Made by a program: the position numbers and the translations under genes
Origin: a virus
DNA length: 35,676 bases
Direction: 5' to 3' (one strand)
Virus record (IMG/VR): IMGVR_UViG_3300032278_000047
Span: 1 to 35,676 of that record
Part shown: piece after piece, positions 11,524 through 31,950 of the stretch
Numbering within the stretch: the first letter of the stretch is position 1
Layout: every line of letters begins with the position of its first letter
The notes under the pieces: model-generated
What the model was told of the DNA's origin: nothing
What the model saw: only the letters and a program-made list of their open reading frames with translations
Databases searched by the model: none

Positions 11524-11553
11524 ATTATACCATTTTTGGTATAGCAAAGTCAA
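11524..11553 (-). promoter_or_regulatory. Family B early promoter, sigma-70 type (copy 1)
   Basis: Minus strand: TTGACT (11548-11553), 18-base spacer, TATAAT (11524-11529) preceded by TGG (extended -10). AAATTAACC flanks the -35. The transcript leader ends in AACACAATTGAGGAAAAG before the ATG of the 77-residue gene. Confidence 0.85.
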
Positions 11554-17630: not shown

Positions 17631-18851
17631 TTAGAATGGTGTAAAATCAATTGTTGACTCATTGCCCGGCTCGCTATCTACTACTACTGTTTCATCATGT
17701 GCTGTGTACAATTCCATAAACGACGATTTGGTTTCTTCATCGAATCTACTAACACACAGATCAATCGCCAGTAACTTATCTTCAAAAATTCCAAAAGCTT
17801 TTACAATGTGAACCAATCGCCGTGTGCTGATAATTTCATCACAACCATCATCATAGTAGGTCTTGCGAATTGACTCCGCCCAGTTACTTAACTTCTCCGC
17901 AAAGCCATCATCTACTGCGTCAGCTTCAGCCATGTGTTTGAGTAACATTTTCTTCTCAGTCGCTGGCTGAGGATAGGACTGTTCTAGTGTAATCGCGAAT
18001 CTCTCTAAGAACGCTTCGTTGAGAATTTGAGTACCTACAAAAGAACCAGACTCAGAACCTTTACCTTTAGTATTCGCTGTCGCTAGGATTGTAAATCCTT
18101 TGGTAGGTTTGACCCACTGATTGATTTTTTTGAGAAATACACCCTTGCCTTCTAGCACTGGCTGTAGACACAAAATCTTATTACTAGCTAGGTCAATTTC
18201 ATCTAGTAGAAGAACCGCACCACGTTCCATCGCGTCTACCACAGGGCCTCTATGGAAAACTGTTTCACCATTGACTAACCTGAATCCACCTAGTAAATCA
18301 TCTTCATCAGTTTCGATTGTGATGTTGACACGAATACATTCACGTTTCAATTTCGCACAGACCTGTTCGATCATGAAAGTTTTTCCATTACCTGATAGTC
18401 CTGTAACAAAGGTAGGATAGAACATTTCAGACTTGACAATCTTTTCAACTTTGGAATGATGACCCCACTTGATATAGGTACTATCCGCGGATGGGATAAA
18501 ACTGACATCATCCATAGAGCCAACCAATTCGCCGCTAGTCTGACGAGCAGCTTCTGGAAGTACCGTAGTTACTGGGTCAATCGCGGGAACATTTTCGCCG
18601 CTATCTGACGAATCGCCATCCAAGACAGATCTGTCTACTACGTAGAACTGAACTTTACCTACTTTCTTACCCTTGACTGCTCCTGCTGAGACCTGATTCA
18701 TCTTTCTACTGCAATACATTCCGCGATTATCAAACACCTCGACCAACATTGGGTTACTAACCTCAATGGGTGGAGTATCATAATACCGATCCAGTTCTTC
18801 AACACTTTCTTTTGTACTCAGTCGATCAATTCGCGTCTTACTCAATGTCAT
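17631..18851 (-). CDS. cobS: MoxR/CobS-like AAA+ ATPase
   Basis: AAA+ ATPase of the kind annotated as CobS in marine T4-like phages. Walker A GLSGNGKT (151-158), Walker B AVLLLDEID (212-220), sensor-1 TILATAN (254-260) and arginine-finger region FLERF (281-285) are all intact. DEDDLLGGF and GAVLLLDEIDLASNKI are typical of the CobS/MoxR branch. CobS with CobT and CobN inserts cobalt in B12 synthesis; no CobN is present here, so a general MoxR-type chaperone or remodelling role with the VWA protein at 20654-22879 is more likely. GGAGAA precedes the ATG, and its own family B promoter lies 25 bases upstream, predicting early expression. Confidence 0.9.
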   Translation of the reverse strand: MTLSKTRIDRLSTKESVEELDRYYDTPPIEVSNPMLVEVFDNRGMYCSRKMNQVSAGAVKGKKVGKVQFYVVDRSVLDGDSSDSGENVPAIDPVTTVLPEAARQTSGELVGSMDDVSFIPSADSTYIKWGHHSKVEKIVKSEMFYPTFVTGLSGNGKTFMIEQVCAKLKRECIRVNITIETDEDDLLGGFRLVNGETVFHRGPVVDAMERGAVLLLDEIDLASNKILCLQPVLEGKGVFLKKINQWVKPTKGFTILATANTKGKGSESGSFVGTQILNEAFLERFAITLEQSYPQPATEKKMLLKHMAEADAVDDGFAEKLSNWAESIRKTYYDDGCDEIISTRRLVHIVKAFGIFEDKLLAIDLCVSRFDEETKSSFMELYTAHDETVVVDSEPGNESTIDFTPF

Positions 18852-18875
18852 TTCTCCAATTGTTTAATATACTAT

Positions 18876-18905
18876 ATTATACCATTTCTGGTAGGTCAAA
18901 GTCAA
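18876..18905 (-). promoter_or_regulatory. Family B early promoter (copy 2)
   Basis: Minus strand: TTGACT at 18900-18905, 18-base spacer, TATAAT at 18876-18881 with TGG before it. Drives the AAA+ ATPase gene; leader ends AAACAATTGGAGAAATG. Confidence 0.85.
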
Positions 18906-18911
18906 GGCTAT

Positions 18912-19088
18912 TTACTGATTAAATCGAAAAATAGTTCCATCTGGTAGAACATACTCAGAGTGACTATCAGTAGTCAACCCGCGACTCGCGAGATCTAATC
19001 GCGTGTAATGTAAACTCATTTGACCTGTCATTTTGACACGTACTACAACACTATCTGTGGTCGATTCGACCCATACAAAACTTCTCAT
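18912..19088 (-). CDS. Small early protein, 58 residues
   Basis: Starts at the ATG at 19088 (AAAGG 9 bases upstream) or at an upstream GTG at 19097. Arg/Val/Thr-rich, beta-strand-like, ending VLPDGTIFRFNQ. It sits alone between two early promoters and ahead of the AAA+ ATPase. No family recognised. Confidence 0.65.
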   Translation of the reverse strand: MRSFVWVESTTDSVVVRVKMTGQMSLHYTRLDLASRGLTTDSHSEYVLPDGTIFRFNQ

Positions 19089-19122
19089 TCGGAACACCTT
19101 TTCCTATTGTTTAATATACTAT

Positions 19123-19152
19123 ATTATACCATTTTTTGGGGGTGAATGTCAA
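19123..19152 (-). promoter_or_regulatory. Family B early promoter (copy 3)
   Basis: TTGACA at 19147-19152, 18-base spacer, extended -10 TATAAT at 19123-19128. The only copy here with a run of C (CACCCCC) in the spacer. Drives the 58-residue gene. A family A element lies about 90 bases further upstream, giving tandem promoters. Confidence 0.85.
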
Positions 19153-19239
19153 GACTAATTTCAAACTTTCTTTCAATCGTCGTAAACACCCCTGTCAACA
19201 GTGGGTACTCTATGTGTTTAGTTGTCCTTATTAACATAT

Positions 19240-19278
19240 ACACTATATTAGACGTTCTCCAGTGGAAAAGGTTTAGGT
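19240..19278 (-). promoter_or_regulatory. Family A promoter-like element (copy 2)
   Basis: CTAAACCTTTT, 11 variable bases, CGTCTAATATAGTGTA on the minus strand. It lies in the gene-poor stretch 19089-19400, which otherwise holds only a family B promoter (19123) and a terminator (19366). An open frame across it (to 19342) is judged spurious. Confidence 0.55.
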
Positions 19279-19365
19279 GTTTCTGAGATTTTTTGATCTT
19301 TTCTGAAAAATAATCGTCGTCCACTCGAAACCACAAGACCATATTTATTTGAGATTTCTCAAAGT

Positions 19366-19402
19366 GTCCAAAAATTGAACAGTGTCACTTTTGGGTGACA
19401 CT
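19366..19402 (-). terminator. Rho-independent terminator after the 50-residue gene
   Basis: Minus strand: an 8-bp stem AGTGTCAC/GTGACACT with loop CCAAAA, followed by GTTCAATTTTT. It begins within the stop codon of the gene at 19401-19553. Same stem sequence as the terminator at 19557-19591. Confidence 0.75.
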
Positions 19403-19553
19403 ATTTCTTCTTACCACGATCGCTCCAGCTATCCAAACACAGTTTCAAAAACTCGAAGAAAGTAAGAACAACTCCCCAAAGTTCCTTCAAGAGATAAATT
19501 ATCATTCCCAAAGCTATTACACATACCGTTACAGTTTCCCAATCAATTATCAT
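19401..19553 (-). CDS. Small membrane protein isolated between terminators, 50 residues
   Basis: Long hydrophobic N-terminal half (VTVCVIALGMIIYLL, then LWGVVLTFFEFLKL) and a basic end (SDRGKKK). It is preceded and followed by terminators with the same stem, leaving no room for an ordinary promoter of its own, so expression may depend on read-through. Family unknown. Confidence 0.55.
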   Translation of the reverse strand: MIIDWETVTVCVIALGMIIYLLKELWGVVLTFFEFLKLCLDSWSDRGKKK

Positions 19554-19556
19554 ATC

Positions 19557-19591
19557 TAAAAAAAGACAAAGTGTCACCCGAAAGTGACACT
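19557..19591 (-). terminator. Rho-independent terminator after the 187-residue gene
   Basis: Minus strand: stem AGTGTCAC/GTGACACT with loop TTTCGG, then TTGTCTTTTTTT. It lies 12 bases after the stop of the gene at 19604-20167. Strong stem and U-tract. Confidence 0.85.
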
Positions 19592-19603
19592 CTATCGTTA
19601 AAA

Positions 19604-20167
19604 CTAACTCTTACCTAAATCAAAGAAAACGATCGGTAATCCACTCTCTGTATACTGTACCCAAGCTTGTTTTGGAGTAAACTTCGCTATACATACTGAT
19701 TTTCTACCTTTACCTTTACCTCTAGAATGAGTAGTATTAGTAAGTTTACAATCACTCCAACTAGACTTCTTCGCCAAATCAGTTACAAATTGTCCAGTCT
19801 TAGCTGAACAAAAAACATAATTTTGGTCACGTCCTTCTTTATTACGCTTCATCGACTCTATTCGTAGTGAACTATCCAATCCAAATTCATCAAACGCCTC
19901 TGGTGATCCTAATAGGGCTGACATTGCATGGCCTGGAATCTCAAGTCTACCCGTTAGTAAAGCGAAGTTCAATTTAGACTCAGGTGAAGTATCCAATCTC
20001 GGGCAAGCTTGATCGAGGCCTCTGACTGAAGGTGAATTGTAATCAATCTTTCCTTTAGAATCAACCACTAACGCTACTTGTCCTCGCGAAGTAACTTTCT
20101 GTAGTCCAGCTGGATCAAAGTTAAGTGTACCTAAATCTATCAAGGTTCTCTCGGTAAGTTTTATCAT
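19604..20167 (-). CDS. Unknown protein, 187 residues
   Basis: Soluble and basic in its second half (HSRGKGKGRKSV), with four cysteines. The start is ambiguous: the ATG at 20167 has no Shine-Dalgarno, and a GTG at 20200 would add 11 residues. It is followed directly by a strong terminator, so it is the last gene of its unit. No family recognised. Confidence 0.7.
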   Translation of the reverse strand: MIKLTERTLIDLGTLNFDPAGLQKVTSRGQVALVVDSKGKIDYNSPSVRGLDQACPRLDTSPESKLNFALLTGRLEIPGHAMSALLGSPEAFDEFGLDSSLRIESMKRNKEGRDQNYVFCSAKTGQFVTDLAKKSSWSDCKLTNTTHSRGKGKGRKSVCIAKFTPKQAWVQYTESGLPIVFFDLGKS

Positions 20168-20172
20168 AATAA

Positions 20173-20259
20173 TTATTTTATAGTGGGCTCCATCACCCAC
20201 TCAATTACGAAAATATTTTGACCAAGTGTTAGTATAGGCCCTTGGTCTATTGCCATCAT
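20173..20259 (-). other. Short intergenic stretch with hairpins and a possible 28-residue frame
   Basis: Contains a perfect 7-bp inverted repeat GACCAAG/CTTGGTC (20220-20247, 14-base loop) and a 5-bp GTGGG/CCCAC hairpin (20183-20200) whose loop holds GGAG. A 28-codon ATG frame covers the stretch but has no good ribosome site. A regulatory leader for the downstream gene is as likely as a peptide. Confidence 0.3.
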
Positions 20260-20286
20260 CTTTAAAATAAAGATTTCTTTTGAAAT

Positions 20287-20406
20287 TTACAATTTCCATT
20301 TGTCTAAAAATCTACACCACATTGTGAGTAGTCCTGTTATCAATTCCCATCTGTAATATATCACTAGACCTACTACTAATAGTTCTATCCCTAGTAATAT
20401 TATCAT
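20287..20406 (-). CDS. Membrane micropeptide, 39 residues
   Basis: An N-terminal span (MIILLGIELLVVGLVIYY) and a Trp/Lys-containing tail. The ATG overlaps the stop of the 84-residue gene (GTATGATAAT). Family unknown. Confidence 0.5.
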   Translation of the reverse strand: MIILLGIELLVVGLVIYYRWELITGLLTMWCRFLDKWKL

Positions 20407-20657
20407 ACTTTCATCATATCCGCGGGATTTTTTGTCAGGTCATTGGGATCATTTTCTTCATCTTCTTCGCCCTTGACAGAGAATTGATAATCACCACTGA
20501 TTTTCCCTATGGTAAATGGTAGATTTGGAATCTGTTTCAACTGCTCGATATGATGATGAAGCAGCTGGGCAACCTGATCTCTATTGGAATCTTCGTTGAT
20601 TGTCAATTCCAATTCCAATAAGATCTCACAGATCGCATCTCTCTTGATATCGCTCAT
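20403..20657 (-). CDS. Small acidic protein downstream of the CobT-like gene
   Basis: 84 residues, a helical N-terminal half and an acidic, disordered-looking end (KGEEDEENDPNDL). ATGA overlap with the CobT-like gene indicates translational coupling, so it may work with that protein. No family recognised. Confidence 0.65.
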   Translation of the reverse strand: MSDIKRDAICEILLELELTINEDSNRDQVAQLLHHHIEQLKQIPNLPFTIGKISGDYQFSVKGEEDEENDPNDLTKNPADMMKV

Positions 20658-22879
20658 GAGATTACATCTACCAGTGAATTAAGTACCACTCTATTGGTCA
20701 ATCGAGCTTTGGTATGCTTTTTGAAAGCTGTGGTAATTCTACCTTTCTTTAATCCGCGTTCAATGTCAAATGTATCATTTTCCGTATCAAGATCTTTCTT
20801 ACCTGATTTCAGTACATAGTACTCAGAATATCCACGAACATCAGTAAACACCGCGGACTTGTTCTTATAGAAATCTTTGATCTTCTGATCATTTTCTTCT
20901 GTCTGAGGTAATTTGTAACGTAGGTTATACGCACGGCCGGGAGTCAAAAAGAATCCAACCGTTTCAATACCACAAGTATCCTTCAATGATTCAAGAAGGG
21001 CGTTGGTCATTTCATTACGATTTCCCGCGGGATACTGATTCTTAGTTGTTTTATTGGAAACGATTCTTTCTGAAGATGAATACATATTAGACGGACGTTC
21101 CATATCTTCAGGATAGTACCGTACATCATTACAATTTGATTCACCATCTGTCAACCAAACCGCGGTTACCTTTTCCAAGTTGTAGTGACTACGGAATTTT
21201 GGAATCAGATCATGTGCGATTACGATCGCTTCGTTCAACGGAGTCGAATTCAGGGAGTCATTATAGGGTACTGATCTCCAGTAGGTAGTATCCAAATTTG
21301 TCGCCATGGTGAACAGGTTGAACATCGCTTTATCAAAGGAACTGTTGTTCAATTTACTACTTAGTAATTCACGTAGACGGAAGTTTGAAATTGTCAAATC
21401 GCCGATGTCATAGTTGACCAAAGGATGACCATAGTTGATTGAATTTTGATGATCTGATTCATTTGGTTCTACAACGCCGGACATGATTTGACTAACTTTC
21501 ATACCCGCGTCAGTGAAGGAATAGAGGTGAAATGGAATGTCTACTTTCTTACAGAACATCGCGAGTGTCAGTGATTGACGGATAACCGCACCGATTGAAT
21601 CGGACATAGAACCAGACCAGTCAACGAACATCACCAGACCATGATTTTTCCCGCCAGGAATTGAGGTTACTCGACGAAACAGGTCATCATTGAACTTGTA
21701 TGAGTGAAGCTTGTTCACGTCGATTACACCAGTTTTGGAAATACTCGCACGTGACATCTGTTCTGCGTTTTTCTTCAATTCAAACTCTTTCGCCATGTAG
21801 TTGACTACCTTGACAGTATCTCGTTTGAATTTGGTGAATTCCTTACGTACCAAGTCAGCCTCTAATTCATTGGTGTAGTAAGCCTCGATTTGACCATGAA
21901 CTTCTTTCAGGTCTACCACAAATCCGTCAGAATTGATCTCTGGAATGTAGTAGTAGTTAGGAGAAGCTGATCTTCCCCACTGATTTTCTTCAACCATGTC
22001 ATCAAGTGAATCTTTCAGGTTATCAGACGTTTCAGAATTGAGTTTATCAGTCAGTTCATCCGCACCTTTTTGACCACCAGCATTCGGACTACTGGAATCA
22101 GAATCGGTTGAATTTTCTTCACTGGACTGATCTACATCGCCAGACTGGTCATTACCATCATCTTCTGGTGATTCTACCTTTTCGGTATCATTATTAATGT
22201 CAGATGATGGACTAGGAAACTGTTCATCATCGCCATCAGTCTGAGCTCTTACCATTCTATGTTCAGTGGAAGTCTCAGCTTCGTTCATTTCCTCAAGGGC
22301 TTTGTTCTTCGCGTATGAGTAGATTTCCTTGACCACTTCCATTACATCATCAAAGCTTTTGGTATTTTCTACTAGATTCAGGAAGGGCTTTTCTTCTGAG
22401 TTGAACGGTACACGGACATGGTTTCCAACCTTGAAAAACAGGTTGATTCTGTCAATCAGATTCATTTCTGATACATCGCGATCTTCAATTTTGAACTTAT
22501 CTTCTTCAACCAGAGTCTTATATCCGTTGAAAAATGATCTTTTCAGCCCGGGGAATTTGGTCTTGATCTCACGTTCAATACGTGCGTCCTCGACCACATT
22601 CATATACGTGTGGACTACCTGAGGGCGATCTTCATCAATATTAGTGAATACTGAATCATCATCTAATTGTGGTGTATTGAGTGCGTGACTTACTTCGTGA
22701 CCTACCAGTAAATTGTGAACGTCATTAGACGTATGTGACCAGTTGGGAAGTGACAAAACACGATTAACAGTATCGAAAACCGCGGTTTCAAATTCACCAT
22801 ACTCGACGGTGAGATTCTCTGTCGCCATTAGTTTGGCCAGCTTATCTTTGAAAATTTTGTTGTTGTTGGTCAATTTCAT
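20654..22879 (-). CDS. cobT: CobT-like protein with HExxH metalloprotease motif and VWA domain
   Basis: 741 residues in three parts. The N-terminal domain carries HEVSH (61-65) followed by NVVEDARIE (94-102), the zinc metalloprotease layout of HExxH with a downstream acidic ligand region. An acidic, Ser/Asp-rich linker spans about 215-300. The C-terminal von Willebrand A domain has the MIDAS motif D420-W-S422-G-S424, then TPLNEAI and WLTDGES. CobT proteins share the acidic linker plus VWA layout and partner with CobS-type AAA+ proteins; the partner here is 17631-18851. The ATG at 22879 has AGGAAAAGAGAG upstream. It has its own early promoter. Likely substrate: a protein remodelled or cleaved during host takeover; this part is inference. 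Confidence 0.88.
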   Translation of the reverse strand: MKLTNNNKIFKDKLAKLMATENLTVEYGEFETAVFDTVNRVLSLPNWSHTSNDVHNLLVGHEVSHALNTPQLDDDSVFTNIDEDRPQVVHTYMNVVEDARIEREIKTKFPGLKRSFFNGYKTLVEEDKFKIEDRDVSEMNLIDRINLFFKVGNHVRVPFNSEEKPFLNLVENTKSFDDVMEVVKEIYSYAKNKALEEMNEAETSTEHRMVRAQTDGDDEQFPSPSSDINNDTEKVESPEDDGNDQSGDVDQSSEENSTDSDSSSPNAGGQKGADELTDKLNSETSDNLKDSLDDMVEENQWGRSASPNYYYIPEINSDGFVVDLKEVHGQIEAYYTNELEADLVRKEFTKFKRDTVKVVNYMAKEFELKKNAEQMSRASISKTGVIDVNKLHSYKFNDDLFRRVTSIPGGKNHGLVMFVDWSGSMSDSIGAVIRQSLTLAMFCKKVDIPFHLYSFTDAGMKVSQIMSGVVEPNESDHQNSINYGHPLVNYDIGDLTISNFRLRELLSSKLNNSSFDKAMFNLFTMATNLDTTYWRSVPYNDSLNSTPLNEAIVIAHDLIPKFRSHYNLEKVTAVWLTDGESNCNDVRYYPEDMERPSNMYSSSERIVSNKTTKNQYPAGNRNEMTNALLESLKDTCGIETVGFFLTPGRAYNLRYKLPQTEENDQKIKDFYKNKSAVFTDVRGYSEYYVLKSGKKDLDTENDTFDIERGLKKGRITTAFKKHTKARLTNRVVLNSLVDVIS

Positions 22880-22908: not shown

Positions 22909-22938
22909 ATTATACCATTTTTGGTACATCAAAGTCAA
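22909..22938 (-). promoter_or_regulatory. Family B early promoter (copy 4)
   Basis: TTGACT at 22933-22938, 18-base spacer, TATAAT at 22909-22914 with extended TGG. Leader ends AAACAATTGAGGAAAAG before the CobT-like gene. Confidence 0.87.
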
Positions 22939-23417: not shown

Positions 23418-23490
23418 AGCTGATGGTCGGAATCGAACCGACGACCTGAAGCTTACAAAGCTACTGCTCTGCCATCTGAGCTACATCAGC
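23418..23490 (-). tRNA. tRNA-Thr (anticodon UGU)
   Basis: A complete cloverleaf on the minus strand: acceptor GCTGATG/CATCAGC, D-stem GCTC/GAGC, anticodon loop TTTGTAA (UGU), T-stem GTCGG/CCGAC with loop TTCGAAT. One mismatch (U28-U42) in the anticodon stem. Discriminator T; CCA not encoded. Confidence 0.93.
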
Positions 23491-23492
23491 AT

Positions 23493-23568
23493 TGGCTGGG
23501 ATAGCTGGAATCGAACCAGCAACATTTTGGTTAACAGCCAAACGCTCTACCAATTGAGCTATATCCCA
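23493..23568 (-). tRNA. tRNA-Asn (anticodon GUU)
   Basis: A complete cloverleaf: acceptor TGGGATA/TATCCCA, anticodon loop CTGTTAA (GUU) on a 5-bp stem TTTGG/CCAAA, T-stem GCTGG/CCAGC. Discriminator G, and the 3' CCA is encoded, unlike the other three tRNAs here. Confidence 0.94.
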
Positions 23569-23575
23569 ATAATAA

Positions 23576-23648
23576 TGGAGACAGCCGGGATCGAACCGGC
23601 GGCCTTTGCCGTGCAAGGGCAACGCTCTCCCATCTGAGCTATATCCCC
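23576..23648 (-). tRNA. tRNA-Ala (anticodon UGC)
   Basis: Acceptor GGGGATA/TGTCTCC (two G-U pairs), anticodon loop CTTGCAC (UGC) on stem TTGCC/GGCAA, T-stem GCCGG/CCGGC. Discriminator A; CCA not encoded. First of the three clustered tRNAs in transcription order. Confidence 0.93.
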
Positions 23649-23662
23649 ATATGTTTATCAAC

Positions 23663-26159: not shown

Positions 26160-26189
26160 ATTATACCATTTTTGACATAGCTGTGTCAA
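26160..26189 (-). promoter_or_regulatory. Family B early promoter (copy 5)
   Basis: TTGACA at 26184-26189, 18-base spacer, extended -10 TATAAT at 26160-26165, drives the HTH protein gene. This copy has a longer leader (about 50 bases) lacking the CAATTGAGGAA sequence. Confidence 0.83.
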
Positions 26190-26446: not shown

Positions 26447-26476
26447 ATTATACCATTTATAGAGTAGCAAAGTCAA
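26447..26476 (-). promoter_or_regulatory. Family B early promoter (copy 6)
   Basis: TTGACT at 26471-26476, 18-base spacer, extended -10 TATAAT at 26447-26452. Drives the 70-residue gene. Confidence 0.86.
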
Positions 26477-27033: not shown

Positions 27034-27107
27034 TCGGGGTGGCAGGATTTGAACCTGCGACCTCCTGCTCCCAAAGCAGGCGTTCTGCCGGGCTGAACTA
27101 CACCCCG
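27034..27107 (-). tRNA. tRNA-Pro (anticodon UGG)
   Basis: A complete cloverleaf on the minus strand: acceptor CGGGGTG/CACCCCG, D-stem GTTC/GAAC, anticodon loop TTTGGGA (UGG) on stem CCTGC/GCAGG, T-stem GCAGG/CCTGC. Discriminator A; CCA not encoded. It stands 3.4 kb away from the other tRNAs, embedded between small protein genes. Confidence 0.94.
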
Positions 27108-28065: not shown

Positions 28066-28485
28066 CTATACAGTATCAGTTCCTTCGCTATCGAAATGTT
28101 CCTCGAAAAGTTCCCAATCAAGCCCTTTATTCCTTTCGACTGGTGTAGAGAAAGCCATAACTTTACCGCCTTCATCTGAAGGTTTGGTATCATTGACTAA
28201 GATCCGAGGCCCTGATGGTAAGTTCATCAGGATATAATCAAATCTCAATCCATGGCGTTTGAGAGCTTTCTCAGTCATATACCGAAAAATACTAGGACGA
28301 GCCGTGGTAATCACAATATAATCCTGCTCTGGTATGTTATCCCACAAGTGAGCCACACCAGGCAAAATATTATCCAATTTCCACTCTTTATTGAATAACG
28401 CATCCAATAATTTGTAGTCCGATTGATGTTCAAAAATTGTACCGTCAACGTCTATAAACCAACATCTATTCATATCCAAACTCAT
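28066..28485 (-). CDS. HAD-superfamily phosphatase-like protein
   Basis: Motif I FIDVDGTIF (10-18; D12 nucleophile, D14) and motif II ITTARPS are clear. A later NDTKPSDE segment stands where the acidic motif IV lies. 139 residues without a large cap domain; resembles short HAD phosphatases acting on nucleotides, sugars or polynucleotide ends. Substrate unknown. Its ATG overlaps the preceding stop (ATATGAGTT). Confidence 0.75.
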   Translation of the reverse strand: MSLDMNRCWFIDVDGTIFEHQSDYKLLDALFNKEWKLDNILPGVAHLWDNIPEQDYIVITTARPSIFRYMTEKALKRHGLRFDYILMNLPSGPRILVNDTKPSDEGGKVMAFSTPVERNKGLDWELFEEHFDSEGTDTV

Positions 28486-28919
28486 ATAAGATCGGGAAAG
28501 GCTTTCTCAACCACCCGTTTTGTTAATCCTTTGTACTTAATTTTCTTCTTAACTCCAGACATCAACAGATCAGCTTCTGTTGGATGTAAACCTTCCAACA
28601 ACTGAATAAACAACTGTTCACGTCTAGTTCTGGTTATATCTCTACCCTGAAGTGGTGTTTGACCATCCACCTGAATAAACCTACCAATTTTTAACGCTTC
28701 CTGTTCTAACCTAGCTTCTGCTAGATCCCATTCTGGTGCATCATTCGGTTCGTATGGTGGCTTACTATCTGGTACTAACCATGTAACCTTATCATCAAAC
28801 ACACAACGTAAAAATATTTGTAATCCCTTTGAATCATGTTCCAGTAGGATCTCTGATTTCTTGTTGATAGATGATTCTTTAGACACTTCCGTAAAAATTT
28901 CATGTAATGATAATTCCAT
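28482..28919 (-). CDS. Conserved T4-like phage protein of unknown function, 145 residues
   Basis: The C-terminal half (QLLEGLHPTEADLLMSGVKKK, split at the L, followed by GLTKRVVEKAFPDLI) is a pattern I recall from uncharacterised proteins of T4-like marine phages; this recollection is not checked. The N-terminal half is acidic. GGAGATT precedes the ATG, directly after the RNase H gene. Confidence 0.7.
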   Translation of the reverse strand: MELSLHEIFTEVSKESSINKKSEILLEHDSKGLQIFLRCVFDDKVTWLVPDSKPPYEPNDAPEWDLAEARLEQEALKIGRFIQVDGQTPLQGRDITRTRREQLFIQLLEGLHPTEADLLMSGVKKKIKYKGLTKRVVEKAFPDLI

Positions 28920-28930
28920 AATATAATCTC

Positions 28931-29785
28931 CTAAAATTCATCAATTCTTTCCATTAACATTCTTAACTTATTTTCTACAAAATAGGGCATCATAACCGAT
29001 CTGTCTGTAGGTTTAAAATTTTTCCAACATTGAATAATATCACCAGACACATTATCTGGAATAACATCACTACTCAGTTGAACCATCTGCTTATTCCTAT
29101 GATAACCGACAGACATTTCGTAATTACAAAATATCTCCGGCTCCATATCAACCCATTTAGAAACTTTTGATTTGGATAATGGTACTTGTCTATTTCCAGA
29201 CACAAAGGTATCATCCGGGCTTAAAAAGTTGGGTACACCATCACCTTTATCACCACGCAATATCTGTTCCTTTAAAAATTTCTCTGGATTATCTATCTCG
29301 ACAAAAATCTTTCTCATAGGATTGAATTGATCCACATTATCGAATTTCTGTAATTGACCAAAATCCTTATCACCTGATAATATCAAAATCTGTTCTTCCA
29401 TTAAGATTTCTGTTAGTATTGCGATTACGTCATCTGCTTCAGCTCCCTCGACCTCAACCACTAGATAGGGAAAAACATCTCGAAGCTCTGACCTAATCTT
29501 ATTTAATGATTGAAAAATATTATTCCAATCAAGACTAGACTGTTCACGACCTTTTTTACGATGAGCTTTGTACTCTGGAAATACAGCCTTTCTCCAGTTT
29601 TTGTTATTGTCACAACAAATAATCAACTCACCATACTTATTTTTAAATTTAGTGCGATAGCTACGTAGACTATTCAACACCATATGTCTAACCAAATCTT
29701 CATCGGCTCTACCTGATATATGTATCTCAGGTTGTTTCATCAAATTCGCGATGAAGATTTGGTTGTAATCAACCAAAATTGCCAT
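28931..29785 (-). CDS. rnh: RNase H / 5'-3' flap exonuclease, T4 Rnh type
   Basis: Removes RNA primers from lagging-strand fragments. The FEN-family acidic clusters are in order: ILVDYNQ (D6), ICCDNNKNWRKAVFPEYKAHR split at 57-76 (D59), EGAEADDVIA (113-122), ILSGDKDF (135-142) and RGDKGDGVPN (177-186) for the helix-hairpin-helix/metal region. QFNPMRK matches T4 QWSPMQK. At 284 residues it compares with 305 in T4. In T4 this gene lies beside dsbA-33-59-32; here it is 26 kb away from that block. Confidence 0.92.
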   Translation of the reverse strand: MAILVDYNQIFIANLMKQPEIHISGRADEDLVRHMVLNSLRSYRTKFKNKYGELIICCDNNKNWRKAVFPEYKAHRKKGREQSSLDWNNIFQSLNKIRSELRDVFPYLVVEVEGAEADDVIAILTEILMEEQILILSGDKDFGQLQKFDNVDQFNPMRKIFVEIDNPEKFLKEQILRGDKGDGVPNFLSPDDTFVSGNRQVPLSKSKVSKWVDMEPEIFCNYEMSVGYHRNKQMVQLSSDVIPDNVSGDIIQCWKNFKPTDRSVMMPYFVENKLRMLMERIDEF

Positions 29786-31920: not shown

Positions 31921-31950
31921 ATTATACCATTTACGAGGTAGCAAAGTCAA
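31921..31950 (-). promoter_or_regulatory. Family B early promoter (copy 7)
   Basis: TTGACT at 31945-31950, 18-base spacer, extended -10 TATAAT at 31921-31926. Leader TATAAACAATTGAGGAAATG. A family A element (32017) lies about 70 bases upstream, the same tandem order as at 19123/19240. Confidence 0.87.

What the first reader, a model, noticed from the sequence alone, without database searches (positions are those of the whole stretch)
17631..22879. CobS-like AAA+ ATPase paired with an HExxH/VWA CobT-like protein under separate early promoters
The pair combines an intact AAA+ motor with a protein that has a zinc-protease motif (HEVSH, NVVEDARIE), an acidic linker and a VWA MIDAS. Without a CobN gene, cobaltochelatase is unlikely as the sole role. 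A motor plus protease-adaptor expressed immediately after infection suggests a dedicated machine that remodels or degrades a host protein complex.
Basis: partly seen in the sequence, partly recalled or inferred. Interest (0 to 1): 0.72.

Follow-up and report, generated by a model that had tools for sequence, protein, structure and literature searches.

The report
Phage AAA+ motor with protease-like partner
A marine-type virus of bacteria carries a two-gene protein-remodelling machine that databases call a vitamin B12 enzyme; its intact protease-like site, its relatives' position beside DNA-copying genes and its presence in viruses of bacteria that cannot make B12 suggest it instead works on protein complexes, possibly those on the viral DNA.

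Summary
On the minus strand lie a CobS-like AAA+ ATPase (17631-18851) and a CobT-like protein (20654-22879) with HExxH, NxxEDxRIE, an acidic linker and a VWA MIDAS. Each has its own near-consensus sigma-70 promoter. The pair itself is known: it is core in T4-like cyanophages and was proposed to hijack host CobN (PLoS Biol 2021). What I add: (1) HExxH, the Glu/Asp of the second motif and the MIDAS Asp/Ser residues are invariant in 63 sequences, whereas 27 cellular CobTs lack HExxH. (2) The modelled N-terminal domain resembles minigluzincin/gluzincin metallopeptidases, but not at a significant E-value. (3) The pair also occurs in phages of hosts that do not make B12 (Pelagibacter, E. coli K-12). 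(4) Relatives place it between gp46/47 and gp45/44, or beside dnaE, polymerase/primase, or ssb/bet/exo. A cobaltochelatase role is therefore unlikely in general. Best reading: a MoxR/VWA-type remodelling machine with a probably active metalloprotease adaptor, most likely serving DNA replication/recombination. Protease activity and target are inferred, not shown. A host complex as target is not specifically supported.

The parts
17631..18851 (-). CobS-like AAA+ ATPase, 406 aa (phrog_249)
   Evidence: AAA_5 E=1.3e-16; phrog_249 E=2e-115; TIGR01650 CobS only 69.4 bits against cut-off 558.55
18378..18401 (-). Walker A GLSGNGKT
   Evidence: sequence; invariant in 7 aligned relatives
18198..18212 (-). 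Walker B LLLDE
   Evidence: sequence; invariant in 7 aligned relatives
18876..18905 (-). sigma-70 / early-type promoter of the CobS-like gene
   Evidence: 7 sites against 0.03 expected; context
20654..22879 (-). CobT-like protein, 741 aa from ATG (phrog_459 'peptidase')
   Evidence: phrog_459 E=2e-196; no Pfam or CobT model hit
22262..22876 (-). N-terminal minigluzincin-like domain
   Evidence: AlphaFold model pLDDT 89.6, pTM 0.84; top Foldseek hits jannalysin, selecase, abylysin, E 0.16 and weaker
22685..22699 (-). HEVSH zincin motif
   Evidence: H, E and H invariant in 63 of 63 sequences; absent in 27 of 27 cellular CobTs
22574..22600 (-). NVVEDARIE, putative third-ligand (Glu) motif
   Evidence: N, E, D, R invariant in 63 of 63
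21977..22261 (-). acidic low-complexity linker
   Evidence: 29% D+E, poorly conserved, 0.31 against 0.62 in the N-terminal domain
20927..21646 (-). VWA domain
   Evidence: Foldseek matches NorD VWA (E 9e-4) and MDN1 MIDAS (E 1.1e-3)
21608..21622 (-). MIDAS DxSxS (DWSGS)
   Evidence: D, S, S invariant in 63 of 63
22909..22938 (-). sigma-70 / early-type promoter of the CobT-like gene
   Evidence: 7 sites against 0.03 expected; context

Best explanation
The two genes encode a MoxR/midasin-class remodelling machine. The CobS-like AAA+ ring provides ATP-driven force. The CobT-like protein docks on it and grips a client through its VWA MIDAS. The acidic linker connects this to an N-terminal minigluzincin-like domain that is probably an active zinc metallopeptidase. 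Its most likely job is to unfold, extract or cut proteins in the element's DNA replication/recombination machinery or on its DNA, not to insert cobalt into corrins. Shown here: both proteins, intact catalytic and MIDAS residues, purifying selection, own promoters, linkage of the pair across relatives, recurrent DNA-metabolism neighbourhood, presence where cobaltochelatase is not expected to operate. Inferred: that the two proteins form one complex, that zinc is bound, that there is proteolysis, and the client.
For: HExxH, E96, D97 and MIDAS D/S residues are invariant in 63 sequences. The motif is also intact in distant partners from Ochrobactrum, Rhizobium, Vibrio ICP2, Klebsiella, Acinetobacter, Roseobacter, Pelagibacter, E. 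coli K-12 and conjugative-plasmid elements. HExxH is absent from 27 of 27 cellular CobTs that hit Pfam CobT; they show mostly H[DN] in place of HE while keeping the E..R.E motif. Top Foldseek hits of the N-terminal model are minigluzincins and other gluzincins. The VWA matches the AAA+-partner VWAs of NorD and midasin. Linkage: 73 of 79 loci found by CobS also hold CobT, and the other 6 are cut close to CobS. Neighbourhood: gp45/gp44 downstream in 62 of 63 and gp46/gp47 upstream in 58 of 62; dnaE beside the pair in phage-plasmids and phages; polymerase/primase in Zobellviridae; ssb/bet/exo or recT/exo in IncC and MOBH plasmids. The pair is in HTVC008M of Pelagibacter and PhiR41_1 of E. coli K-12; SAR11 is B12-auxotrophic (PMC9296465).
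Against: DNA-metabolism genes are the commonest recognisable genes in phage early regions, so adjacency alone is weak, and the dnaE lineages may share one ancestral cluster, leaving perhaps four independent cases. In the window itself the pair is away from the replisome cluster. In CRP-810 the neighbours are an endonuclease V and an integrase. The Foldseek hits for the N-terminal domain are not significant (best E 0.16). Two lineages (nickie, BUCTxx99) keep the pair with HExxH lost, so catalysis may be dispensable. No biochemical data exist.
Confidence: 0.5

Rival explanations
1. Viral CobST replaces the missing or ChlI/ChlD-derived subunits of host cobaltochelatase and drives host CobN to raise B12 output (the published view).
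For: Cyanobacteria have CobN and lack CobS/CobT (PMC9227772); a Prochlorococcus single-cell genome with the phage locus has CobN matches; proposed in PMC8651126.
Against: The pair is equally conserved in phages of hosts that do not make B12: SAR11, E. coli K-12. TIGR01650 equivalog cut-off missed by far; no CobT Pfam hit. No CobN in 18 related records. It leaves a strictly conserved HExxH unexplained, which cellular CobT lacks.
Confidence: 0.12
2. A cofactor-insertion or assembly chaperone for a phage or host metalloenzyme, like NorQD or CbbQO, with the HExxH domain as a binding module.
For: VWA closest to NorD and MDN1 MIDAS; CbbQ/NorQ chains match CobS; the motif is lost in two lineages that keep the pair.
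Against: No metalloenzyme partner gene is constantly linked; HExxH and third-ligand residues are invariant in 63 sequences.
Confidence: 0.18
3. A host-takeover machine that dismantles or degrades a host complex early in infection.
For: Own early-type promoters in this virus and in L005; the pair sits among small early-type genes here.
Against: Conserved linkage to the phage's own replication cluster elsewhere; related AAA/VWA sets are present on conjugative plasmids that do not take over hosts; such promoters are uncommon in the family.
Confidence: 0.15
4. The N-terminal domain is a catalytically dead zincin used only as scaffold; the pair is a pure unfoldase.
For: Cellular CobT and two phage lineages lack HExxH but keep the architecture; Foldseek match not significant.
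Against: Invariance of H, E, H and E96 in 63 sequences and retention in distant relatives.
Confidence: 0.25

Closest known systems
Cyanophage/pelagiphage CobS and 'peptidase' (CobT) pair (phrog_249 and phrog_459)
   Same: same families, gene order and motifs; core in T4-like marine phages (PMC8651126, PMC3037559)
   Different: in this virus the pair is separated by 1.8 kb of small ORFs, is not seen next to gp46/47-gp45/44, and each gene has its own promoter
Aerobic cobaltochelatase CobNST (CobS and CobT; PDB 9uka and others)
   Same: AAA+ of CobS type; partner with N-terminal domain, acidic linker and VWA
   Different: HExxH absent in cellular CobT; no CobN seen; far below the CobS equivalog cut-off; phages of hosts without B12 synthesis also carry the pair
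MoxR/VWA machines: NorQD, CbbQO, midasin (MDN1)
   Same: AAA+ of the MoxR/midasin clade paired with a MIDAS VWA
   Different: I know of no minigluzincin-like domain in these, and their clients differ
Minigluzincins (jannalysin, selecase, abylysin) and Wss1/SPRTN with Cdc48
   Same: HExxH plus downstream Glu, predicted fold; Wss1 works with an AAA+ ATPase on DNA-bound proteins (PMC4559962)
   Different: no SprT or WLM domain detected; MoxR-type rather than Cdc48-type AAA+; activity unknown

Membership tests
Aerobic cobaltochelatase CobS | TIGR01650 equivalog score at or above 558.55 bits | tested here: not met
   69.4 bits
Aerobic cobaltochelatase CobT | Pfam CobT (PF06213) and CobT_C (PF11775) match | tested here: not met
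   no hit for the window protein; distant phage partners do hit CobT_C
Aerobic cobaltochelatase | CobN subunit available | tested here: inconclusive
   none in the window fragment or in 18 related records; host of this virus unknown
MoxR/VWA AAA+ pair | AAA_5-type AAA+ with Walker A, Walker B and a conserved arginine (LERF) | tested here: met
   AAA_5 E=1.3e-16; motifs invariant in the alignment
MoxR/VWA AAA+ pair | linked VWA protein with MIDAS DxSxS...T...D | tested here: met
   D, S, S, D invariant and T in 62 of 63; fold match to NorD and MDN1 MIDAS; linkage
MoxR/VWA AAA+ pair | physical complex of the two proteins | not testable with these tools
   needs co-purification
Minigluzincin metallopeptidase | HExxH with downstream Glu ligand | tested here: met
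   63 of 63 invariant; ligand geometry not inspected
Minigluzincin metallopeptidase | minigluzincin fold | tested here: inconclusive
   best hits are minigluzincins but E is 0.16 or weaker
Minigluzincin metallopeptidase | zinc binding and proteolysis | not testable with these tools
   biochemistry needed
Wss1/SPRTN DNA-protein crosslink protease | SprT-like or WLM domain | tested here: not met
   no Pfam hit
Phage CobS/'peptidase' families (PHROG 249 and 459) | family profile match over most of the length | tested here: met
   E=2e-115 and 2e-196

The most novel reading that the evidence does not exclude
A metalloprotease-armed AAA+ machine of the replisome, shared by unrelated phages, phage-plasmids and conjugative plasmids, that clears proteins from their DNA in a way analogous to Wss1/SPRTN with Cdc48. 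Cellular cobaltochelatase CobT would be a relative whose protease site has been lost.
Probability: 0.2. Interest if true: 0.88.

Novelty: new variant of a known kind. Interest (0 to 1): 0.6.

Why it matters
cobS is one of the few core genes shared by T4-like cyanophages and is tabulated as a B12-synthesis auxiliary gene in ecological studies; papers state that its role in phages is unknown (PMC9983427, PMC11288001). If the pair is a protein-remodelling protease of the replication apparatus, those B12 inferences are wrong for a large share of marine viruses, and a conserved step of phage DNA metabolism has been missed. The E. coli K-12 relative PhiR41_1 makes the question testable in a laboratory strain.

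Tried and rejected
PADLOC: no defence-system match. PDB sequence searches with CobT or its N-terminal profile found no relative. The Staphylococcus phage 812 AAA protein (gp48) has no CobT-like neighbour with HExxH or a MIDAS motif among those checked; it was dropped as a relative of the pair. Acinetobacter phage AM24 encodes a CobS-like AAA protein without an annotated CobT neighbour. A Burkholderia megaplasmid VWA protein lacks HExxH and its role is unclear. Genome scans with a diverse CobT alignment or with the Acinetobacter CobT gave nothing. I considered that HExxH conservation was an artefact of searching with a HEVxHA pattern; loci found through CobS alone show the same motif. I considered that CobT is 'mistakenly' called a peptidase, as PMC8651126 says; the evidence here makes that annotation defensible. 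Profile-profile comparison of phage and cellular CobT aligned the motif region collinearly but with weak statistics (P about 0.015), so homology of that domain rests partly on intermediate sequences.
Full report
The window contains, on the minus strand, a 406-aa CobS-like AAA+ ATPase (17631-18851) and a 741-aa CobT-like protein (20654-22879). The first matches AAA_5 (E 1.3e-16) and phrog_249 'porphyrin biosynthesis' (E 2e-115). The second matches phrog_459 'peptidase' over its whole length (E 2e-196) but no Pfam family. Comparison with a sister virus (L005, 78-79% identical CobT) gives dN/dS near 0.15 and 0.19, so both proteins are under purifying selection.

The promoters are real features. 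The shared pattern TTGACTn7ACCAn4TGGTATAAT (up to 3 mismatches) occurs 7 times on the coding strand against 0.03 expected; one copy lies just upstream of each of the two genes. L005 also has a near-consensus promoter upstream of each gene. In the wider family such promoters are uncommon at these genes (5 of 123 CobT, 11 of 164 CobS), so the arrangement belongs to this sub-lineage. Early timing is inferred from promoter type only.

The virus is an uncultured T4-like phage: it has gp32 (best matches 50-56% to cyanophages and to Pelagibacter phage HTVC008M), and matches to a helicase loader, a late-promoter regulator, exonucleases, ligase, thymidylate synthase and endolysin families. Its host is unknown and the record is a 35.7-kb fragment.

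The pair is not new as such. In the phage collection CobT matches 365 Synechococcus, 61 Cyanophage and 24 Prochlorococcus records and CobS matches the same numbers. The PLoS Biology 2021 paper (PMC8651126) noted that cobST is widespread in tailed viruses and core in cyanophages, called the peptidase annotation mistaken, and proposed hijacking of host CobN. Other papers say the function in phages is uncertain (PMC9983427; PMC11288001).

Test 1, the zincin motif. Across 63 sequences H60, E61, H64, N93, E96, D97, R99 and the MIDAS D419, S421, S423 and D577 are invariant, and T545 is T in 62 of 63 (numbering from the residue after the ATG). Some relatives were found through a pattern that includes HEVxHA, but loci found through CobS alone show the same motif wherever the N-terminus is present. 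The motif is also intact in distant partners: Ochrobactrum HESAH, Rhizobium HEVGH, Vibrio ICP2 HECYH, Klebsiella HEVGH, Acinetobacter HEVAH, a MOBH plasmid HEIGH, E. coli K-12 phage PhiR41_1 HEVAH, Roseobacter CRP-810 HEAGH, Pelagibacter HTVC008M HEVGH. It is lost in Pseudomonas phage nickie and Stenotrophomonas phage BUCTxx99. By contrast none of 27 cellular CobTs from the family of a Rhodobacteraceae genome has HExxH; the first histidine is followed by Asp or Asn, the second histidine is often gone, and the E..R.E motif remains. AlphaFold gives the N-terminal domain with pLDDT 89.6 and pTM 0.84. Its best Foldseek matches are jannalysin, selecase and abylysin (minigluzincins), with ArdC, BlaR1, LTA4H and IrrE/PprI among the next, most of them metallopeptidases or zincin-like; none reaches significance (best E 0.16). 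The zincin reading is therefore well supported by conservation and only suggestively by fold.

Test 2, the VWA. The full model (mean pLDDT 73) matches NorD VWA and the MDN1 MIDAS domain (E about 1e-3), both VWAs that work with MoxR/midasin-type AAA+ rings. CobS matches midasin, CobS, CbbQ and NorQ chains. This supports the 'motor plus adaptor' class.

Test 3, cobaltochelatase. The CobS equivalog cut-off is missed by far (69.4 against 558.55 bits) and CobT models do not match. CobN is absent from 18 phage and plasmid records that carry the pair or a related ATPase. The decisive point is the hosts. The pair is in HTVC008M of Pelagibacter, and SAR11 and nearly all Flavobacteria are B12-auxotrophic (PMC9296465). 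It is in PhiR41_1 of E. coli K-12, a species that needed imported cobN, cobS and cobT to make B12 (PMC6249242). It is on a contig of a Nonlabens isolate whose assembly has no CobN, with the caution that the contig may be a phage sequenced alongside the host. More than a thousand plasmid records, mostly Klebsiella, Escherichia and Acinetobacter, match the distant CobT type, although some of these are weak VWA-only matches. Cyanobacteria do have CobN and lack CobST (PMC9227772), so hijacking remains possible there but cannot explain the family.

Test 4, neighbourhood. In relatives with enough flank, gp45/gp44 follow CobS within 6 kb in 62 of 63, and gp46/gp47 precede CobT in 58 of 62. In unrelated elements the pair is beside dnaE (Rhizobium, Stenotrophomonas, nickie, Acinetobacter and Klebsiella phage-plasmids, SSU5, PhiR41_1), beside polymerase and primase genes (ICP2, T5S1), or, as an AAA / DUF3150 / VWA set, beside ssb/bet/exo or recT/exo on IncC and MOBH plasmids. 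PHROG profiles tie these partners together. CRP-810 is an exception, with only endonuclease V and an integrase nearby. Because DNA genes are common and easily recognised in such elements, and the dnaE cases may be one lineage, I count this as moderate evidence. In the window and in L005 no gp46/47 or gp45/44 match is seen and each gene has its own promoter, which suggests that the pair moved out of that cluster in this sub-lineage.

Mechanism. I favour an AAA+ ring (CobS-like) that pulls on clients held by the CobT VWA, with a minigluzincin-like domain on the flexible acidic linker that can cut them, acting at phage DNA replication or recombination complexes. A close working parallel is the minigluzincin Wss1 with the AAA+ Cdc48, which clears DNA-bound proteins (PMC4559962); this is analogy only, since no SprT or WLM domain is present. 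Complex formation, zinc binding, proteolysis and client identity are all untested.

Verdict. An accurate observation of a known, widespread pair, whose standard B12 annotation is probably wrong in general, and whose intact zincin site, set against cellular CobTs that lack it, together with the replication linkage, gives a testable new reading.

Noticed in passing
window 11524-11553, 18876-18905, 22909-22938: Three of the seven early-type promoters carry a TACCA-n4-TGGTA palindrome overlapping the -10 box, a possible operator shared by the CobS, CobT and one further gene.
   Followed up: partly
window 19123-19152, 26160-26189, 26447-26476, 31921-31950: Further copies of the same promoter, most with an upstream GTGAAATTAACC-like box, define a likely early gene set in this virus.
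   Followed up: partly
window 23418-23649 and 27034-27107: tRNA-Thr, tRNA-Asn and tRNA-Ala cluster just upstream of the CobT-like gene, and a separate tRNA-Pro.
   Followed up: no
L175 3370-5454 and L169 3730-5715: Phages nickie and BUCTxx99 keep the CobT/CobS pair but have lost HExxH: natural variants lacking the motif.
   Followed up: partly
L173 and L174: IncC and MOBH conjugative plasmids carry an AAA / DUF3150 / VWA set beside ssb/bet/exo or recT/exo; the MOBH VWA protein has an intact HEIGH.
   Followed up: partly
L196 7354-10660: A relative with reversed order (CobS before CobT) still between gp46/47 and gp45/44.
   Followed up: no
window 28931-29785 and 28482-28919: A protein matching an exonuclease family (phrog_107) and, beside it, a 145-aa protein of unknown function (phrog_461) with a weak match to part of the ATP-dependent ligase family.
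   Followed up: no
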